A DNA stretch of 64,000 nucleotides, taken from the NCBI RefSeq assembly GCF_000023225.1, contig NC_013173.1, positions 62,001-126,000 of the forward strand, read 5' to 3'. Below are positions 24,890 through 55,554 of the stretch, piece after piece. Both the position numbers and the translations under genes were made by a program. Under the pieces are notes generated by a model. It searched no databases. It had not been told where the DNA came from and was given only the letters and a program-made list of their open reading frames with translations. This DNA is from Desulfomicrobium baculatum DSM 4028 (GTDB lineage: Bacteria > Desulfobacterota > Desulfovibrionia > Desulfovibrionales > Desulfomicrobiaceae). Numbering within the stretch: the stretch's first letter is position 1; every line of letters starts with the position of its first letter.

Positions 24890-26128
24890 CTACCAGGCGA
24901 AAAGCGGGAACTGGCCCGCGAATTTCTCCACTTCCAGCCGAATCTCGGTCAGTCTGGACTCATTGTCCAGGTTTTCCAGGATGGCGACAATCCATTTGGC
25001 AACCTTGCGCATGTCGTCGCTCTTCATGCCGCGCGTGGTCAAGGCCGGCGTGCCCAGGCGCACCCCGGAGGTGACGAAGGGGGAGCGGGTCTCGAAGGGC
25101 ACGGTGTTCTTGTTGACGGTGATGCCGCCCTTGTCGAGGCCGATCTCGGCGTCCTTGCCGGTGATGTCCTGGGCAGTCAGGTCCACCAGCATGAGATGGT
25201 TGTCCGTGCCGCCGGAGACCAGATGGTACCCGGCTGCCGTCAGTTCGGCCGCCAGAGTCTGGGCGTTGGCGACGACCTGCTGCTGATAATCCTTGAATTC
25301 CGGGCGCAGCGCCTCGGCAAAGGCCACGGCTTTGGCCGCGATGACGTGCATGAGCGGTCCGCCCTGGATGCCGGGGAAGATCTGGGAGTTGAGGGTCTTG
25401 CCGAATTCCTCGGTGCTCAGGATCATGCCGCCGCGAGGACCGCGCAGGGTCTTGTGCGTGGTCGTGGTGGTGAAGTGGGCGTGCTCGATGGGCGAGGGGT
25501 GCAGGCCCGTGGCCACCAGGCCCGCGATGTGCGCCATGTCCACCAGCAGTTTGGCCCCCACCTTGTCGGCGATGGCCCGGAAACGGGCGAAATCGAGGGT
25601 GCGCGGGTAGGCGCTGGCCCCGGCGATGATCATCTGGGGCTTGTGTTCCAGGGCCAGGGCTTCGACTTCGTCATAGTTGATCTGGCCGGTTTCCTTCTCG
25701 ACCCCGTAAAAGGCGGTCTTGAACAGGCGTCCTGAAAAATTGACCGGGCTGCCATGGGTCAGGTGACCGCCATGGGACAGATTCATGCCGAGGATGGTGT
25801 CGCCGGGCTGGATGGCCGCGAAATACGCGCCCATGTTGGCCTGGGAACCGGAGTGGGGCTGAACGTTGGCGTATTCGGCGTTAAAGAGCTGGCGGGCCCG
25901 CTCCATGGCCAGGTTTTCGGCCATGTCCACGAACTCGCAGCCGCCGTAATAGCGTTTGCCCGGATAGCCTTCGGCGTATTTGTGGGTCATGACGCTGCCC
26001 ATGGCGGCGCGGACCGCAAGGGAGGTGAAGTTCTCCGAGGCGATGAGTTCGAGTTTGGTGATCTGGCGGTTGGTCTCCAGCTGGATCGCTTTGGCGATCT
26101 GCGGATCCTGGCGGGTGAGTTCGTCCAT
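24890..26128 (-). CDS. glyA: Serine hydroxymethyltransferase
   Basis: PLP enzyme interconverting serine and glycine with tetrahydrofolate, the main one-carbon source. The 412-aa length is standard. It has [28 protein letters not shown] at the N-terminus (read as two adjoining family blocks) and the PLP lysine in [15 protein letters not shown] near residue 230. It is followed by comEB after a hairpin, so one-carbon supply is placed next to dTMP synthesis. Confidence 0.98.
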
Positions 26129-26169
26129 GGTGCCTCCACTCTGTTGAGCCGCGCGCTGGCGGCGGATCG

Positions 26170-27411
26170 TTATTTGAAACTGCGCAGGATGATGGAGGCG
26201 TTGGTGCCGCCGAATCCGAACGAGTTGCTGATGCCGTATTCCAGTTCCATTTTCCTGCTGGCGCCCGGCGTGTAGTCAAGGTCGCAGTCCGGGTCCGGGG
26301 TGTCCTGGTTGATGGTGCCCGGAACGATGCCGTTCTGCAGACTCAAGGCTGTGAAGACCGCCTCGGCGCCGCCGGCGGCGCCGAGCAGGTGCCCGATCAT
26401 GCTCTTGTTGGCGGTGATGGGCATCTTATATGCGTGATCTCCGAAAACGGCCTTGATGGCTTTGGTTTCGGTCTTGTCGTTGAGCTTGGTCGATGTGCCG
26501 TGCGCGTTGACGAAGGTGACCTGTTCGGGAGCCAGTTCGGCGTCGCGCAGGGCGCACGTCATGGCCTGGGCCATGCCCGTGCCCGACTCTTCGGGGGCGG
26601 CGATGTGATATGCGTCCCCGGAAGCGCCGTAGCCGACGACCTCGGCGTAGATTTTGGCTCCACGCGCCAGCGCGTGTTCAAGCTCTTCGAGCATGAGCAG
26701 GCCCGCGCCCTCGCCGATGACGAAGCCGGTGCGGTCGGCGTCGAAGGGGCGACTGGCCTTGAGCGGTTCGTCATTGCGGGTGGACAGGGCCTTCATGGCC
26801 GTGAAACCGGACACGCCCATGGGCGTGATGGTCGACTCCACGCCGCCGGTGATGCAGGCCTTGACCCGGCCGAGCTTGATGTCGGAATACGCGTAGCCGA
26901 TGGCGTGGGTGGCCGAGGCGCAGGCCGAGGTGGTGACCAGGTTCGGGCCCTTGGCGCCGGTGTGGATCGAAATCTGCCCCGAAGCCATGTTGGCGATGAG
27001 CATGGGGATGTAGAAGGGTGAAACCCGTCCCGGCCCGGATTTGAGCAGCTTGCTGTGAAAATCCTCGATGGTGGACAATCCGCCCAGGCCGCAGCCCAGG
27101 AGCACGCCGACTTCGGGGGCGGTGGCCTCGTCCATGACCAGGCCGCAGTCTTCCATGAGCTGCTTGCCGGTGGCCACGGCGATCTGGACAAAGCGGTCCA
27201 TGCGCTTGGCGTCCTTGACCCCGACATAATCCGTCGGATCGAAATTTTTCAGTTCCCCTGCGATCTTCGCATCGAATTCGCAGCAGTCGAAAAGAGTGAT
27301 GGGGCCAATGCCGCAAACTCCTCCGACAAGGTTGGTCCAGCTTTCCTGCAGGGAATTGCCAATGGGGGTCATGGCCGCAAGGCCTGTAATGACAACGCGT
27401 TTTCCAATCAT
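26170..27411 (-). CDS. fabF: 3-oxoacyl-ACP synthase II
   Basis: Elongating condensing enzyme of type II fatty acid synthesis. It is 413 aa long, with the Cys-His-His triad: [13 protein letters not shown] (Cys near 165), [12 protein letters not shown] and [13 protein letters not shown]. The C-terminus is [16 protein letters not shown]. It is separated from acpP by an intrinsic terminator, so its expression depends partly on readthrough. Confidence 0.98.
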
Positions 27412-48794: not shown

Positions 48795-49790
48795 ATGGCT
48801 GTCAAAATCGCACTTAACGGCTTTGGTCGCATCGGACGCTACCTGGCCCGCATTCTGGCCGGAAACACGGATGTCGAACTGGTCTGCGTCAACGCGCGCG
48901 GCGACAACGCGTCGCTGGCGTATCTGCTCAAATACGACTCCGTCCACGGCACCTTTGCCGGTGAGGTCGAGCCCAACGAACAGGGTTTTCTGCTGAACGG
49001 AAAGCAGGTGCTGGTCACCCGCAACGCTCCCGACGCCTGGGACTGGAAGGGCATCGACATCGTGGTCGAATCCACCGGCAAGTTCACGGACCGCGAAAGC
49101 TGCGAGAAGCATCTGGCCGCCGGCGCAAAAAAGGTGCTGATCTCCGCCCCCGGCAAGAACGCCGACCTGACCGTGGTCATGGGCGTCAATGACGGCCTCT
49201 ACGATCCGGCCAAGCACAACATCATCTCCAATGCCTCCTGCACCACCAACTGTCTGGCACCTGCGGCCAAGGCGTTGAACGACACCTTCGGCATCAGGCA
49301 CGGTCTCATGACCACCATCCATTCCTACACCATGAGCCAGCGCATGCTCGACGGCACCCACAAGGACATCCGCCGCGGTCGTGCCGGGGCCATGAACATG
49401 CTGCCCACGACCACGGGCGCGGCCAAGGCCGTGAGCATGGTCATCCCGGCCCTGGCGGGCAAGCTCGATGGCATGGCCGTTCGCGTGCCCACGCCCAACG
49501 TGTCGCTGGTGGACCTGGTGGTGGAAGTGGAGAAGAAGGCCACCGTGGCCGAGGTCAACGCCGTCCTGAAGGCCGCGGCCAGCGGACCCGAAGGCGGGGC
49601 CATGGGCTACACGGAAGTGCCGCTCGTTTCCATGGACTACGTCGGCAGCATCTACGGCGGCGTGGTCGACGGCCTGTGCACCTCGGTCATGAACGGCACC
49701 ATGGTCAAGATCATCGTCTGGTACGACAACGAGGCCGGTTTCACCAACCAGCTGCTGCGCCTGATCAAGACGGTCGGAGCATCTTTGTAA
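48795..49790 (+). CDS. gap: Glyceraldehyde-3-phosphate dehydrogenase
   Basis: NAD(P)-dependent oxidation of glyceraldehyde-3-phosphate. The 331-aa protein starts AVKIALNGFGRIGRYLAR and has the active-site SNASCTTNCLAP (Cys near 152) and HSYTMSQRMLDG. It is 18 nt downstream of fba and closed by a terminator at 49815. Confidence 0.98.
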   Translation: MAVKIALNGFGRIGRYLARILAGNTDVELVCVNARGDNASLAYLLKYDSVHGTFAGEVEPNEQGFLLNGKQVLVTRNAPDAWDWKGIDIVVESTGKFTDRESCEKHLAAGAKKVLISAPGKNADLTVVMGVNDGLYDPAKHNIISNASCTTNCLAPAAKALNDTFGIRHGLMTTIHSYTMSQRMLDGTHKDIRRGRAGAMNMLPTTTGAAKAVSMVIPALAGKLDGMAVRVPTPNVSLVDLVVEVEKKATVAEVNAVLKAAASGPEGGAMGYTEVPLVSMDYVGSIYGGVVDGLCTSVMNGTMVKIIVWYDNEAGFTNQLLRLIKTVGASL

Positions 49791-49814: not shown

Positions 49815-49850
49815 CAGAACGCCCGGCCAGTCCGGGCGTTCTGCTTTGAA
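49815..49850 (+). terminator. Intrinsic terminator after gap
   Basis: CAGAACGCCCGG (49815-49826) pairs perfectly with CCGGGCGTTCTG (49832-49843) around a 5-nt loop. Only a short CTTTG tail follows. The 49791-50123 gap contains this element and a decayed dnaE leader, and no gene that I can support. Confidence 0.75.
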
Positions 49851-49857
49851 GCGCGGC

Positions 49858-49960
49858 TTGCAATTCGGCCCCGCCTTTTCTAGTCTTTTTTGGCAGTGAA
49901 TCCGTTTTTTGTCCGTGAGCGTCATGGGCGGCTTCTTCCAACTGCATTGTCATTTCGCGC
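49858..49960 (+). pseudogene. Decayed copy of the dnaE promoter and first codons
   Basis: This stretch aligns with 52028-52130. The promoter frame is the same (TTGCAA, 17 nt, TAGTCT at 49881, against TTGCGA, 17 nt, TAGTCT at 52051). After a 5-nt length difference, an ATG at 49924 opens MGGFFQLHCHF, matching DnaE MSGFTHLHCHS; I count about 35 of 48 identical bases around that start. Similarity fades by about 49960. It marks an old insertion between gap and dnaE. Confidence 0.7.
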
Positions 49961-50123
49961 GCAGGCTCCCGCGATGTCAATTCTTTGGTCCCGGCTCAGA
50001 TGTCTTGCGCCAGCCCTCGTGGGACCGGAGGGCCGCCGAGGTGTCTCTCGGTGGAAATATTTCGGGCGATGCGCTTATGGACAGTGTTGAACAATGCCAT
50101 GGAAACGACGTGTGGAGGGATAG

Positions 50124-51842
50124 ATGGATCGTGCCGCTTTGGCCGCAATTCTTGACCGGCTGTGCTCCGCTTCCGAAGAGACGGGGACCGTCGAGTTCAA
50201 GTCGAATTGGGATAATCCTCACGACATCGGCGAATATATTTGCGCCCTGGGCAACACCGCTCGCCTGGACAATGAGGATCGGGCCTGGTTGCTTTGGGGT
50301 GTGGAGAACGGGACCCATCGCATTACAGGGACGGTGTTTGATCCGTTTTCGGCAAAGGGAGAGGGGAATCAATCTCTTATAATGTGGCTGATGCAGAAGA
50401 TCAGCCCAAAGCCGGATTTTCAGTTTCATCGTCTGGAGCATGCGGATGGTCCGGTTATCATGCTGGAAATCCACCCTCCGCGCATGGCACCGCTGGCCTT
50501 TCAAGGAGAGCGGTTTATTCGGGTTGACAGCCATAAGACGAAGCTTGCGAAGTATCCTGCAATCGAGGGACGCCTATGGGCCGCACTGGAGAGCCCTGAA
50601 GATTGGTCCAGTCAGATAATTCCAGGTGCCACATTTGATGATCTTGATCCTGACGCCGTGTCTTTTTGCCGGCAACGGTTTCTTGATCATCTGTTGAAAG
50701 GGGAAACCGATCCGGAACGGCAGGAGAAAATCCGGACGGATGCCCATGGTTGGGATATCACCACGTTGCTCAACAAAGCCCGACTGACTATTCAGGGCCG
50801 GATAACCCGTTCCACACTTCTTTTGTTGGGTAGAGACGAATCGGCGCATTTTCTGTCTCCGGCGGATGTCAAGATCTCGTGGATTCTCCGCGATGACCAG
50901 CACAGGATGATAAGCAGTCAGCATTTTGGCATGCCCTTGTTGCTGGCTACGGATGCCGTTTTCCGCCGTATCCGCAATGTGCCCATCGAGTACATGCCGG
51001 ACGGTAGCCTCTTTCCCGTTCCGATTCCTCAATATGACAATTGGGTTATTCGCGAAGCCCTGCATAATTGCATCGCGCATCAGGACTATCGACTCGGCGG
51101 CAAGATCAATGTGGTCGAATACCCTGACAAACTGGTTTTTTCCAATTTGGGTTCATTCATCCCGCAAAGCGTGGAATGGATGTTGGAAAATCAGTCTCCT
51201 CCCGAGCGTTACCGGAATCAGTGGCTTATTGATGGAATGATTCGACTACGCATGATTGATCAGGCGGGAAGCGGGATTCGGCGCATGTACGAAACACAAC
51301 GCGAAAGGTATTTCCCTTTGCCGGACTATGATTTCGCGGAGGAAATCGACGGGTATCCTCGGGTGAGGCTTTCTTTGAGTGGCAAGATTCTGGACTCAAA
51401 CTATACGCAATTGCTGATGCGTCGGGCAGATCTTAAACTTAGACAAGTTTTTCTCTTGGATAAGGTGCAAAAAGGACTGTCTATTTCTGCGAATGAAGCA
51501 CGCGCTTTACGGGAAGGCAAACTTATCGAAGGTCGAGCGCCGAATTATTTCATTTCAGCCAAAGTGGCGGAGTGGACAGACCAGAAGGCACGGTACATCC
51601 ATAACCGTGCTTTTGATGATGAACATTATCGGAAGATGATTATTGAATATCTTCGACAATACAAACAGGCTTCCCGGCAGGAGTTGGACGAATTGTTGCT
51701 GCCTAAGCTGTCTGATGTCCTGACGTTCAAGCAAAAGCGCGATAAGATTAGGAATCTCCTTCAAGCATTGCGGAGAGAAGGTCATCTTCAAAATCTTGGT
51801 GGGAGGCAGTCTTCTGTGTGGGCTTTGGCTTCGGAGGTTTGA
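50124..51842 (+). CDS. Schlafen-type AlbA_2 / HATPase domain protein, likely from a defence island
   Basis: A 572-aa COG2865-like protein. Residues about 15-150 form the AlbA_2 (Schlafen) nucleic-acid-binding domain (ETGTVEFKSNWDNPHDIGEY with the E-F-K motif, GVENGTHRITGT). About 320-430 is an HATPase_c_4-type domain (NWVIREALHNCIAHQDY, NVVEYPDKLVFSNLGSF, AGSGIRRMY), and the C-terminus is probably winged-helix. GGAGGG precedes ATG 50124. Base composition and codon use are clearly more AT-rich than the neighbours, a sign of transfer. A type III restriction gene relic follows 97 nt downstream. Role unproven; regulator or nuclease-associated ATPase are options. Confidence 0.85.
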   Translation: MDRAALAAILDRLCSASEETGTVEFKSNWDNPHDIGEYICALGNTARLDNEDRAWLLWGVENGTHRITGTVFDPFSAKGEGNQSLIMWLMQKISPKPDFQFHRLEHADGPVIMLEIHPPRMAPLAFQGERFIRVDSHKTKLAKYPAIEGRLWAALESPEDWSSQIIPGATFDDLDPDAVSFCRQRFLDHLLKGETDPERQEKIRTDAHGWDITTLLNKARLTIQGRITRSTLLLLGRDESAHFLSPADVKISWILRDDQHRMISSQHFGMPLLLATDAVFRRIRNVPIEYMPDGSLFPVPIPQYDNWVIREALHNCIAHQDYRLGGKINVVEYPDKLVFSNLGSFIPQSVEWMLENQSPPERYRNQWLIDGMIRLRMIDQAGSGIRRMYETQRERYFPLPDYDFAEEIDGYPRVRLSLSGKILDSNYTQLLMRRADLKLRQVFLLDKVQKGLSISANEARALREGKLIEGRAPNYFISAKVAEWTDQKARYIHNRAFDDEHYRKMIIEYLRQYKQASRQELDELLLPKLSDVLTFKQKRDKIRNLLQALRREGHLQNLGGRQSSVWALASEV

Positions 51843-51845
51843 ATG

Positions 51846-51881
51846 GCTAAGCTAAAGGGCGTTGTTTTAGCAAAGCTTAGC
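51846..51881 (+). repeat. Inverted repeat just after the AlbA_2 gene
   Basis: GCTAAGCT (51846-51853) and AGCTTAGC (51874-51881) flank 20 nt, and a run of eight T follows near 51898. It may be a weak terminator or part of the mobile segment's structure. Surroundings are AT-rich. Confidence 0.45.
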
Positions 51882-51939
51882 TAAGAAATTCAGGGATGTT
51901 TTTTTTAAAAACCTTGAAATAATAAGATAATTTGTTGCT

Positions 51940-52017
51940 ATGAAGTTTCATTTTGAGCCGGATCTTGACTACCAGTACGCCGCCATCGACGCCGTATGCT
52001 CCCTGTTTTAGGGCCGT
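51940..52017 (+). pseudogene. 5' relic of a type III restriction endonuclease (Res) gene
   Basis: An ATG at 51940 opens MKFHFEPDLDYQYAAIDAVC then SLF and a TAG (52009-52011), followed in frame by GR. Type III Res subunits start in just this way (xFxPDLDYQxxAIxAVxxLFxGQ, from memory). The rest of the gene is absent; the sequence passes into the dnaE promoter about 10 nt later. It is thus a deletion remnant of ~25 codons carrying a stop. Confidence 0.7.
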
Positions 52018-52027
52018 TTTCTGCAGC

Positions 52028-52056
52028 TTGCGAAACCAGCCAACCTTTTCTAGTCT
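52028..52056 (+). promoter_or_regulatory. Probable dnaE promoter
   Basis: TTGCGA (52028-52033), a 17-nt spacer and TAGTCT (52051-52056), 43 nt before the dnaE ATG. The boxes are only partly consensus, but the same arrangement is conserved in the decayed copy at 49858-49886, which supports it. Confidence 0.5.
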
Positions 52057-52098: not shown

Positions 52099-55000
52099 AT
52101 GAGCGGTTTTACCCATCTGCATTGCCATTCCGAGTACAGTCTTCTGGACGGCGCCATTCGCCTCAAAGACCTGTGCGCCCGGGCCGTTGATTTCGGCTTT
52201 TCATCGGCCGCCATCACCGACCATGGCAATCTCTTCGGCTCCGTACCCTTCTACCTTGAGGCCAAGAAGCACGGCATAAAACCCATCATCGGCAGCGAGG
52301 TCTACATCGCCGACGATATGTTCGAGCGGGAAAACAAAAAGCGCTTTCACCTTGTTCTTCTGGCCCAGAATCTGATCGGCTATCACAATCTGGTCAAGAT
52401 CGTGTCCGCCGGTTTCCTGGAAGGGTTTTATTACAAGCCCCGGGTGGACAAGAAATACCTGCGCGCCCATAGCGAGGGCCTTATCTGCCTGTCGGCCTGC
52501 CTGCAGGGCGAAGTGCCCTATGCCTTGCGCCACGGGACCTTCGACAGCGCCCTTTTGAAGGCCCGCGAATACATGGAGATTTTTCCGGACCGGTTTTATC
52601 TGGAGCTGCAGTCCAACGGTCTCAAAGAACAGGAAGTGGTCAACGACAGGCTCATGGAACTGGCCAACGAGACCGGGCTGCCGCTGGTCGCCACCAACGA
52701 TTGCCACTACTTGGGCAAGGACGACTACGAGGCCCACGACATCCTCCTGTGCGTAGGCACAGGCAAGATCGCCTCGGAAAAGCAGCGTCTCAAATTCGAC
52801 ACCAACGAATTCTACTACAAGGCCCCGGAAGAGATGGAGGCCGCCTTTGCCCATTGCCCCGAGGCCGTGGAGAACGCGGGCCGCATCGCCGACATGTGCG
52901 AGGTGGAACTAAAGCTCAAGCAGCATTTCTTTCCGGTCTACGACGTGCCCGAGGGCGTGACCCTGGACCAGGAATTCCGCCGCCTGTCCGAAGAGGGGCT
53001 GAAGGAGCGCATCGCGGCCCTGCCTTACGAGGTGGACGAGTCCGTTTACCGCGAGCGTCTTGAACTCGAACTTGGCGTCATCATCGAAAAGGGCTTTCCA
53101 GCCTATTTCCTGATCGTGCAGGACTTTATCAACTGGGCGAAATCAAAGAATATCCCAGTCGGCCCAGGCCGTGGGTCGGCGGCCGGGTCGCTGGTCTCGT
53201 ACGCACTCAGGATCACGGATCTGGACCCCATTCGCTACGCGCTCTTCTTCGAGCGGTTTTTGAATGTGGAGCGTGCGTCCATGCCTGATATCGACGTGGA
53301 CTTCTGCTATAACCGCCGCGACGAGGTCATCAAATACGTCTCGGAAAAATACGGGGCCGACCATGTGGCCCAGATTGTGGCCTTCGGGACCATGAAGGCC
53401 AAGGGCGCCATCCGCGACGTGGCCAGGGCGCTCGATGTCAGCCTCAAGGACGCCGATCGCATCGCCAAGCTCATTCCCGACGACCTGAAGATGACCCTGA
53501 CCAAGGCCCTGGACGAAGAGCCGGAGCTGAGGAATCTCATCGACAGCGATCCGCAGTACAAGAAGCTCTACGACGTGGCCCGGCGCCTGGAGGGCCTGGC
53601 CCGGCATTCGTCCATCCACGCCGCCGGCATCGTCATCTCCCAGAAGCCCATGGTCGAGTACCTGCCCCTGCACAAGGGCAAGAACGGGGAGGTCGTGACC
53701 CAGCTGGACATGAAGAAGGTCGAGCTGATCGGCCTCATCAAGTTCGACTTTCTGGGCCTTAAAACCCTGACCGTCATCGACGACGCCCTGAAGCTCATCC
53801 GCAAGAACAACAAGCCCGTGCCGATCTTGGAAAAGCTGCCTCTCGACGACCCGCAGACTTTCGAGCTCCTCTGCCGGGGCGAGACGGACGGCGTGTTCCA
53901 GCTGGAATCCGACGGCATGCGCCGGGTGCTGCGCGGCCTCAAGCCTTCCTGCTTCGAGGACATCATCGCGCTTCTGGCCCTGTACCGCCCGGGGCCGCTG
54001 GAATCCGGCATGGTCGACGACTTCATCGGCCGTAAGCACGGCCTGCGCAAGGTCGAGTACGAATTCGAGGAACTGGCCCCGGTGGTCCACCCCATTCTGG
54101 AGGATACCTACGGGGTCATCCTATACCAGGAACAGGTCATGAAGATCGCCTCGGACCTGGCCAAGTATTCTCTGGGCGAGGGCGACAACCTGCGCCGGGC
54201 CATGGGCAAGAAGGACCCGGCGGAGATGGCCAAGCAGCGGGTGCGCTTTCTGGACGGCGCGCGCGAGAACAACATTTCCCAGGAGGCCGCCGAGTACATC
54301 TTCGACCTCATGGAAAAATTCGCGGGCTACGGGTTCAACAAATCCCACAGCGCGGCCTACGCGGTCATCTCCTACCAGACCGCCTACGTGAAGGCCCATT
54401 ACCCGGCCGAGTTCATGGCCGCCATCATCACCTCGGAGGTGTCCAACACCGACAAGATCCTGGCCCATGTCAGCGCCTGCCGGGACATGGACATCGAAGT
54501 CCTGCCCCCGGACGTGAACAGGAGCTTCAACGAGTTCACCGTCGAGGGCGAGTCCATTCGCTACGGTCTGTCCGGCATCAAGGGCGTGGGCGAGGGGGCT
54601 GTCGAGTCCATCGAGGAGGAACGGGAGAAGGGCGGGGATTTCACCAGCCTGCTTGATTTCTGCCAGCGCGTGAATCTGCGCAAGGTCAACAAGCGGGTGC
54701 TCGACTCCCTCATCAAGTCCGGGGCCATGGACAGCTTCGGATGCTCGCGCAGGGCGCTGCTGGAAAACCTCGACAAGGTCCAGGCCATGGCCCAGAAGCG
54801 GGCCAAGCGCAAAACCTCCGGCCAACTCTCGTTCATGGGCATGGTGGAAGAGAACACCTGCAACCTTACGGGGCTGGGCATCGAGGACGACGAGGCCGCG
54901 CTGCCGGAATTCGGGGATGACGAGAAATGCCGCATGGAGAAGGAGGCTTTCGGATTCTTCCTCATCGGCCATCCGTTGCAGCCTTTCCGCCAGGAGATCA

Positions 55001-55554
55001 GGCGGCTCGGCTATCCGTCCCTGGCGCAGTGCGCGGACCTGACGGAGAAGTCGCCGGTGCAGGTGCCTGTCCTGGTCACGTCGATGAAGACCATCAACAC
55101 CAAGAAGGGCGATCGTATGGCCTTTTGCGGCATCGAGGACCTGAGCGGTTCGGGCGAGGCCATTGTTTTTTCGGAGCCGTACGTGACCTACCGCGAGCTC
55201 TTGACCTGCGAGGAGCCGCTGCTCATGACCGGCGTGGTGGCCAAGCGCGAGATGAACGGCGAGGAGAGCGAGGACGGGCCCAAAAAGTCCAAGATTCTGG
55301 CCGAGTCCTTCAAGCTGCTCTCGGAGGTGGTCGGGTCGGGCACGGAGCCGGTGGTCCTTTTTGTGCGCGCCAACGGAAAGGACCCTGACTGGATCGGGCT
55401 GGGGGAGATCGTCAAGCGGTATCCGGGACAGGCCCCGGTGCAGGTCGATCTTGCTCGCGGGGAATACGTGTGCCGACTGCAGTTCGGGCCGGACTTCATG
55501 GTTGCGCCGTGCCCGGATTTCTGGCGGGATTTTGAACAGTGGCGACAGATCTGA
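52099..55554 (+). CDS. dnaE: DNA polymerase III alpha subunit
   Basis: Replicative DNA polymerase, 1151 aa, close to E. coli DnaE. It starts with a PHP domain (HLHCHSEYSLLDGA). The C-family palm follows with PGRGSAAGSLVSYAL, the catalytic PDIDVDFC (Asp-x-Asp), and KSHSAAYAVISYQTAYVKAHYP. A helix-hairpin-helix (GLSGIKGVGEGAVESI) and an OB fold near residue 1000 (VPVLVTSMKTINTKKGD) are present. The ATG at 52099 follows GAGAG. queD starts immediately after. Confidence 0.98.
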   Translation: MSGFTHLHCHSEYSLLDGAIRLKDLCARAVDFGFSSAAITDHGNLFGSVPFYLEAKKHGIKPIIGSEVYIADDMFERENKKRFHLVLLAQNLIGYHNLVKIVSAGFLEGFYYKPRVDKKYLRAHSEGLICLSACLQGEVPYALRHGTFDSALLKAREYMEIFPDRFYLELQSNGLKEQEVVNDRLMELANETGLPLVATNDCHYLGKDDYEAHDILLCVGTGKIASEKQRLKFDTNEFYYKAPEEMEAAFAHCPEAVENAGRIADMCEVELKLKQHFFPVYDVPEGVTLDQEFRRLSEEGLKERIAALPYEVDESVYRERLELELGVIIEKGFPAYFLIVQDFINWAKSKNIPVGPGRGSAAGSLVSYALRITDLDPIRYALFFERFLNVERASMPDIDVDFCYNRRDEVIKYVSEKYGADHVAQIVAFGTMKAKGAIRDVARALDVSLKDADRIAKLIPDDLKMTLTKALDEEPELRNLIDSDPQYKKLYDVARRLEGLARHSSIHAAGIVISQKPMVEYLPLHKGKNGEVVTQLDMKKVELIGLIKFDFLGLKTLTVIDDALKLIRKNNKPVPILEKLPLDDPQTFELLCRGETDGVFQLESDGMRRVLRGLKPSCFEDIIALLALYRPGPLESGMVDDFIGRKHGLRKVEYEFEELAPVVHPILEDTYGVILYQEQVMKIASDLAKYSLGEGDNLRRAMGKKDPAEMAKQRVRFLDGARENNISQEAAEYIFDLMEKFAGYGFNKSHSAAYAVISYQTAYVKAHYPAEFMAAIITSEVSNTDKILAHVSACRDMDIEVLPPDVNRSFNEFTVEGESIRYGLSGIKGVGEGAVESIEEEREKGGDFTSLLDFCQRVNLRKVNKRVLDSLIKSGAMDSFGCSRRALLENLDKVQAMAQKRAKRKTSGQLSFMGMVEENTCNLTGLGIEDDEAALPEFGDDEKCRMEKEAFGFFLIGHPLQPFRQEIRRLGYPSLAQCADLTEKSPVQVPVLVTSMKTINTKKGDRMAFCGIEDLSGSGEAIVFSEPYVTYRELLTCEEPLLMTGVVAKREMNGEESEDGPKKSKILAESFKLLSEVVGSGTEPVVLFVRANGKDPDWIGLGEIVKRYPGQAPVQVDLARGEYVCRLQFGPDFMVAPCPDFWRDFEQWRQI

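What the first reader, a model, noticed from the sequence alone, without database searches (positions are those of the whole stretch)
51940..52030. Stub of a type III restriction (Res) gene fused to the dnaE promoter
An ATG at 51940 opens a 23-residue peptide with the DLDYQ-x3-AI-x-AV-x2-LF pattern of type III Res N-termini, stopped by TAG, with the next in-frame residues (GR) still matching the family's LF-x-GQ. About 10 nt later the dnaE -35 box begins. The rest of the restriction gene has been lost by a deletion whose right end sits at the dnaE promoter. No annotation pipeline would call a 25-codon fragment, yet it identifies the neighbouring AlbA_2 gene as the survivor of a restriction-modification island.
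Basis: partly seen in the sequence, partly recalled or inferred. Interest (0 to 1): 0.72.

Follow-up and report, generated by a model that had tools for sequence, protein, structure and literature searches.

The report
Restriction gene stub beside dnaE promoter
A short leftover of a bacterial DNA-cutting defence gene sits just before the gene for the main DNA polymerase, showing that a defence cluster once stood there and lost its enzymes while one partner gene survived.

Summary
The stub is real. Window 51940-52008 encodes the first 23 residues of a type III Res, then TAG. PADLOC REase_III matches it at profile positions 1-22 (E=7.5e-4). Part of a longer res stub from sister genome G012, at the same gap-dnaE site, finds it at E=1.3e-9. 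Its DNA is 73.5-76% identical to three intact res genes and beat all 300 shuffles against each of four. Seven of 80 fetched loci read mod - AlbA_2 relative - res, so the neighbouring AlbA_2 gene is the likely survivor. The genome has no full-length Res and no N6_N4_Mtase match. AlbA_2 has dN/dS about 0.08 against G013.

New here: the remnant lies between two copies of the dnaE 5' region. The native promoter and a decayed dnaE start stay beside gap (49858-49969). dnaE follows a second copy whose -35 to -10 stretch resembles those of G012 and G013, not the native ones. Thirteen of 17 family genomes with gap seen beside dnaE have no insert.

The parts
48795..49790 (+). gap (glyceraldehyde-3-phosphate dehydrogenase), left flank gene
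   Evidence: ORF; Pfam Gp_dh_C 7.4e-61 and Gp_dh_N 5e-30; seen upstream of dnaE in 17 of 22 family genomes
49815..49843 (+). terminator-like hairpin after gap, shared with empty-site relatives
   Evidence: by eye; aligned with G005 and G003
49858..49886 (+). LEFT (native) copy of the dnaE promoter-like sequence: TTGCAA-17-TAGTCT
   Evidence: first 30 bases 90-97% identical to those of the 7 remnant-free genus genomes compared, of 13; promoter role inferred from position and conservation
49898..49969 (+). decayed duplicate of the dnaE leader and first codons (ATG at 49924)
   Evidence: local alignment scores 25-35.5 versus shuffle means of 9.2-9.5 and maximum 16, 0 of 300 in each of 5 comparisons
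50124..51842 (+). SLFN_AlbA_2 / HATPase_c_4 protein, 572 aa, intact frame
   Evidence: Pfam 9e-16 and 2.5e-12; 90% identical to the G013 copy; dN 0.060, dS 0.779
51904..51931 (+). AT-rich stretch before res, promoter-like TTTAAA-16-GATAAT
   Evidence: 1 match found, 1.3 expected by chance; the stretch aligns with G012
51940..52011 (+). res stub: codons 1-23 of a type III Res, then TAG
52028..52056 (+). RIGHT copy of the dnaE promoter-like sequence: TTGCGA-17-TAGTCT, divergent type
   Evidence: first 30 bases 90% and 80% identical to the G012 and G013 right copies, 67-73% to 7 native ones; over the whole leader the separation is weaker
52099..55554 (+). dnaE, intact frame
   Evidence: ORF; Pfam DNA_pol3_alpha 1.1e-103, PHP, finger and HHH_6 domains; relatives in 22 of 22 family genomes

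Best explanation
[quoted passage not shown] Shown: res is reduced to its first 23-25 codons ending in TAG, no mod is found, AlbA_2 has an intact, conserved frame, and the remnant lies between two diverged copies of the dnaE 5' region. Inferred: the incoming DNA carried a dnaE promoter and start of a related strain and recombined by homology on the dnaE side and illegitimately on the other side, leaving the native promoter and about 15 native codons as a dead copy next to gap. The deletion that removed res could not run further right without destroying the promoter that dnaE now uses. AlbA_2 was left behind the former dnaE promoter and, given its low dN/dS, still does something for the cell, probably as a stand-alone nucleic-acid-binding regulator or defence protein.
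For: Res homology at protein and DNA level. G012 has a longer res stub (about 72-74 Res codons, open frame running into the TAG of the dnaE -10-like box) at the same site. Mod - AlbA_2 - res in L066, L067, L070, L074, L093, L105, L120 (7 of 80 loci). No full-length Res and no N6_N4_Mtase at E<=0.001 (control rang in 11 of 14 genomes). Thirteen of 17 family genomes with gap seen beside dnaE have no gene-sized insert. Duplicate dnaE 5' region. The three genomes with res or AlbA_2 remnants share a TTGCGA-type promoter although G013's dnaE body goes with G002 and G006 (95%), not with G000 (87%). No tyrosine or serine recombinase match lies in the window.
Against: No genome in hand has an intact mod - AlbA_2 - res at gap-dnaE. 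G012 has a different gene pair (PDC-M59A/B) before its stub, and that pair had no type III res within the about 1.5 kb of flank fetched in 0 hits of 5 other genomes, so the G012 and G000 islands differ. The res stubs of G000 and G012 differ at 7 of 13 synonymous sites while dnaE (first 286 codons) has dS 0.17, so they are not simple vertical copies. After AlbA_2 in G013 a res trace is only marginal: 9 of 500 shuffles against G012, 7 of 500 against G000, and against intact res genes 8, 38, 97 and 297 of 300, with unrelated controls at 37 and 96 of 300. Over the whole -35 to ATG leader G000's right copy is as close to native G001 and G003 (0.82) as to G013's right copy (0.82), so the separate promoter type rests on the 30 bases from -35 to -10. 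Promoter activity is not measured.
Confidence: 0.85

Rival explanations
1. The insertion was made by a site-specific integrative element that targets the 5' end of dnaE and carries a replacement promoter and first codons, so that the essential gene stays on; the R-M genes were its cargo.
For: A direct repeat of promoter plus start codons flanks the remnant; three genomes share the TTGCGA right-hand promoter; different cargo at one site (AlbA_2 in G000 and G013, PDC-M59 in G012).
Against: No Phage_integrase or Resolvase match lies in the window: the nearest are about 0.43 Mb and 0.84 Mb away. The left ends differ in G000, G012 and G013. G015 has a DUF4123 gene at the site with a native-type promoter. 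For G012 and G013 recombinases were looked for only by eye in the ORF lists.
Confidence: 0.15
2. The 23-codon frame is a functional leader peptide or regulatory small ORF for dnaE rather than a dead fragment.
For: It has an ATG and lies directly upstream of the dnaE promoter-like sequence.
Against: It lies upstream of the presumed -35, is absent from empty-site relatives, and in G012 the frame has another length and continues as Res.
Confidence: 0.03
3. Chance resemblance of a short frame to Res.
For: Only 23 residues; Pfam, NCBIfam and PDB sequence searches were silent, and the whole-genome PADLOC profile run missed it.
Against: E=1.3e-9 with the G012 fragment, DNA-level identity to intact res genes, 0 of 300 shuffles in four tests, and the right gene order beside AlbA_2.
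Confidence: 0.01

Closest known systems
Type III restriction-modification systems (mod-res), such as EcoP15I and the systems of PMC8259958 (passages seen)
   Same: N-terminus of Res; gene order of intact relatives mod - AlbA_2 - res
   Different: Only 23 codons of res remain and no mod is found; not a working system
Accessory genes in R-M loci (prrC within EcoprrI, PMC12707154 passages; helicase-like ATPase 5' of mod, PMC8259958 passages)
   Same: An extra gene carried with the R-M genes
   Different: Here the accessory gene is a Schlafen-AlbA_2/HATPase_c_4 protein that outlived the R-M genes
Transformation-made merodiploids with tandem duplications (PMC3784515, passages) and homology-facilitated illegitimate recombination (PMC3240628, start of abstract in the listing)
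   Same: Unequal or one-sided homology leaves a partial duplicate, here of an essential gene's 5' region, beside imported DNA
   Different: No experiment here; the duplicate is about 110 bp, old, and inferred from sequence only

Membership tests
Type III Res (as origin of the fragment) | Res N-terminal sequence | tested here: met
Type III Res (as working enzyme) | Helicase motifs and PD-(D/E)XK endonuclease domain | tested here: not met
   reading frame stops after 23 codons; no full-length Res elsewhere in the genome
Type III R-M system | Cognate mod methyltransferase gene | tested here: not met
   no N6_N4_Mtase match at E<=0.001 in the genome; control rang in 11 of 14 genomes
mod - AlbA_2 - res operon type | AlbA_2 gene directly before res | tested here: met
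   97 bases lie between the AlbA_2 stop and the stub ATG; same order in 7 of 80 loci
SLFN_AlbA_2 / HATPase_c_4 protein | Pfam domains above cut-off | tested here: met
   58.9 bits (cut-off 25.3) and 47.1 bits (cut-off 26)
Integrative element with replacement 5' end of target gene | Recombinase gene in the element | tested here: not met
   no Phage_integrase or Resolvase match at E<=0.001 in the window; the remnant is decayed, so an original recombinase gene may be lost
Integrative element with replacement 5' end of target gene | Defined attachment core shared by both ends | tested here: inconclusive
   the repeat covers promoter and first codons in G000 only; left ends differ in G012 and G013

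The most novel reading that the evidence does not exclude
The gap-dnaE junction of Desulfomicrobium is a landing site where imported defence DNA brings its own dnaE promoter and first codons: the essential polymerase gene is handed to the imported promoter, the old dnaE promoter is captured by the defence cargo, and when the restriction genes decay the cargo gene persists under the captured promoter.
Probability: 0.25. Interest if true: 0.6.

Novelty: new member of a known kind. Interest (0 to 1): 0.42.

Why it matters
It shows that a fragment far below the usual gene-calling thresholds can identify a lost defence system and explain an orphan gene. It also documents an essential replication gene (dnaE) whose presumed promoter appears to have been replaced by a divergent copy beside a defence-island remnant, and an accessory gene that outlived its restriction-modification operon with signs of purifying selection, which makes AlbA_2 a candidate for an independent function.

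Tried and rejected
Pfam, NCBIfam and PDB sequence searches with the 23-mer were silent. Remains of mod between the left dnaE copy and AlbA_2 were sought by six-frame tblastn against the loci held at that point: only self matches and weak, unrelated ones. The 306 bases after AlbA_2 in G013 were tested as a decayed res: marginal, not claimed. PDC-M59A/B was tested as a recurrent mod-res cargo: no type III res match in the about 1.5-kb flanks of 5 other genomes. A single ancestral res truncation shared by G000 and G012 was considered; the stub divergence and the different cargo speak against simple descent, so it is left open. Recombinases were sought by profile in this genome only: 7 Phage_integrase and 2 Resolvase places, none in the window. 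Literature: in the listings I saw no paper on AlbA_2 genes between mod and res or on this locus in Desulfomicrobium; the library is open-access only, four listings were capped (43: 15 of 63; 49: 10 of 449, mostly padlock-probe papers; 50: 12 of 751; 55: 10 of 20), and no listed paper was read whole. Structure prediction was not used, as it would not decide the question.

Full report
WHAT IS THERE. The window is bases 62001-126000 of a single-contig 3.94-Mb genome. Its genus is Desulfomicrobium by inference: the closest AlbA_2 relative lies at bases 25128-26843 of a 29,525-base contig of genome G013, same genus, and the public record JANJWV010000040.1 with the same length and place is a Desulfomicrobium sp. 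MAG (locus L065). In order, the region holds gap (48795-49790), an AlbA_2 gene (50124-51842), the stub (51940-52011) and dnaE (52099-55554); gap and dnaE have the expected Pfam domains.

THE STUB IS RES. The frame MKFHFEPDLDYQYAAIDAVCSLF-TAG is exactly as described. PADLOC's REase_III profile matches residues 1-23 at profile positions 1-22, E=7.5e-4. A profile built here from six intact Res proteins gives E=1.1e-5. At DNA level bases 51934-52008 match the intact res of G021 (L058) at 76% (E=5e-9), and 68-base stretches match L066 (75%) and L105 (73.5%). Against the 5' ends of four intact res genes the stub scores 29-40, where 300 dinucleotide shuffles each never exceeded 19. Pfam, NCBIfam and the PDB sequence search found nothing for so short a query, and the long PADLOC profile run over the whole genome did not list it.

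THE SISTER GENOME SETTLES IT. G012 (dnaE 96% identical over codons 21-286) has at the same site gap - PDC-M59A (1.1e-102) - PDC-M59B/Doc (1.2e-35) - a res stub of about 72-74 Res codons - dnaE. Its frame continues through LFQGQETCQTEF...NRLTLLDDEIL and ends in the TAG of the dnaE -10-like box. The window has TAG where G012 has CAG and lacks most of the rest of that stub. A search with 72 residues of it in 297 genomes of the order hit 16 genomes at E<=0.01; among the 16 genus members only G012 and the window, the latter at 1.3e-9. G012, G011 and G001 also have a full-length, more distant Res next to a mod at another locus.

THE PARENT OPERON. The best 80 of 378 AlbA_2 relatives in GTDB species genomes were fetched (L065 is G013 itself). 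A full or nearly full mod ends within about 150 bases upstream and a long res starts within about 250 bases downstream in 7 of 80 (L066, L067, L070, L074, L093, L105, L120); L116 has mod and only a C-terminal res piece; L087, L094, L102 and L128 have only partial or weak matches to one or both profiles. Among the 14 loci at 55-64% identity other than L065, 5 have this order; of the rest, L068 and L077 have a type I-like methylase gene nearby, others stand among other genes, and some contigs are cut short upstream. The profiles came from six related systems and may miss distant ones. AlbA_2 is therefore a recurrent but not exclusive type III companion, and it is the stub that makes the case here. 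The window genome has no full-length Res (one search lists only a 55-residue match inside a 1,079-aa frame; one search lists 14 places with the general ResIII helicase domain) and no N6_N4_Mtase match.

THE SURVIVING GENE. AlbA_2 has SLFN_AlbA_2 and HATPase_c_4 domains. Against the G013 copy dN is 0.060 and dS 0.779, near the dS of dnaE between these genomes (0.729 over the first 286 codons) and above that of gap (0.384). In both genomes a similar non-mod sequence of about 60 bases precedes its start (by eye), so mod was probably already missing in the common ancestor of the two copies, and the low dN/dS then suggests selection on the orphan gene. This last step is inference.

TWO COPIES OF THE dnaE 5' REGION. 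gap was seen upstream of dnaE in 17 of 22 family genomes (12 of them in the genus). In 13 of the 17 the two genes are separated by about 40-310 bases; the four with a gene-sized insert are G000, G012, G013 and G015; in G007, G008, G009, G010 and G018 gap was not seen in the stretch held. In the window the native arrangement (gap terminator, TTGCAA-17-TAGTCT) is still next to gap at 49815-49886, followed by a decayed dnaE leader and start (49898-49969; scores 25-35.5 against a shuffle maximum of 16, 0 of 300 in each of 5 comparisons). dnaE itself follows a second copy, TTGCGA-17-TAGTCT at 52028-52056. TTGCGA stands at that place in G000, G012 and G013 and in none of the other 13 genus genomes. 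Over the first 30 bases the right copies of these three are 77-90% identical to one another and 60-73% to the 7 native promoters compared, while the left copy of G000 is 90-97% identical to the native ones. Against this, over the whole leader down to ATG the picture blurs: G000's right copy is 0.85 identical to G012's, 0.82 to G013's and also 0.82 to native G001 and G003; G013's right copy is 0.78 to G012's and 0.77 to native G002. G013's dnaE body goes with G002 and G006 (95%) and not with G000 (87%), so the shared -35 to -10 stretch does not follow the species. G000 and G012 are sisters, so these are at best two independent lines. G015 has an unrelated DUF4123 gene at the site and a native-type promoter. 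That these sequences are promoters is inferred from spacing, position and conservation.

HOW IT PROBABLY AROSE. I favour import of a donor stretch carrying [R-M operon - donor dnaE promoter and start], joined by homology inside dnaE and illegitimately on the other side, which leaves the recipient's promoter and about 15 codons as a dead duplicate. Precedents for such one-sided events and for merodiploids formed by transformation exist (PMC3240628, start of abstract in the listing; PMC3784515, passages). Deletions then removed mod and most of res, stopping short of the promoter dnaE now needs. A site-specific element that supplies a replacement 5' end is possible, but this genome's 7 Phage_integrase and 2 Resolvase places all lie outside the window, and no common attachment core was recognised. 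The order of events is inferred: the G012 stub differs at 7 of 13 synonymous sites from the window's although dnaE has dS 0.17, and the cargo differs, so at least one of the two islands was probably exchanged after the species split. In G013 a res trace after AlbA_2 is only marginal (9 of 500 shuffles against G012, 7 of 500 against G000, 8 to 297 of 300 against four intact res genes, controls 37 and 96 of 300).

WHAT IS KNOWN. Type III systems with an additional helicase-like gene 5' of mod are described (PMC8259958, passages), and so is prrC embedded in a type IC locus (PMC12707154, passages). The listings showed no paper on AlbA_2 in type III operons or on this locus in Desulfomicrobium; several listings were capped. 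Decay of R-M systems is a familiar kind of event (general knowledge), so I class this as a new member of a known kind; the promoter duplication and possible exchange at an essential gene is the part a specialist would find new.

Noticed in passing
L033:5238-6032 (G015): A DUF4123 gene (1.5e-13) sits between gap and dnaE in G015, a second kind of insertion at the same junction, with a native-type dnaE promoter after it.
   Followed up: partly
L031:17237-18735 (G012): PDC-M59A/PDC-M59B (Doc-like) pair, a candidate phage-defence pair of PADLOC, lies between gap and the res stub in G012.
   Followed up: partly
L061:5508-12478, L062:4461-10212, L063:2269-8050: In other genomes of the order different genes lie between mod and res: an ATPase-like and a further gene in L061 (by eye), a Bro-N protein in L062 and a very similar gene in L063; a helicase and a DUF4391 gene precede mod in L062.
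   Followed up: partly
L060:5044-9083: Two similar mod genes in tandem before res in G167.
   Followed up: no
window 51845-51890: TTAGCTAAGC-like palindromic repeats between AlbA_2 and the res stub, also seen before the res stub in G012 and, more loosely, after AlbA_2 in G013 (by eye); possible operator.
   Followed up: no
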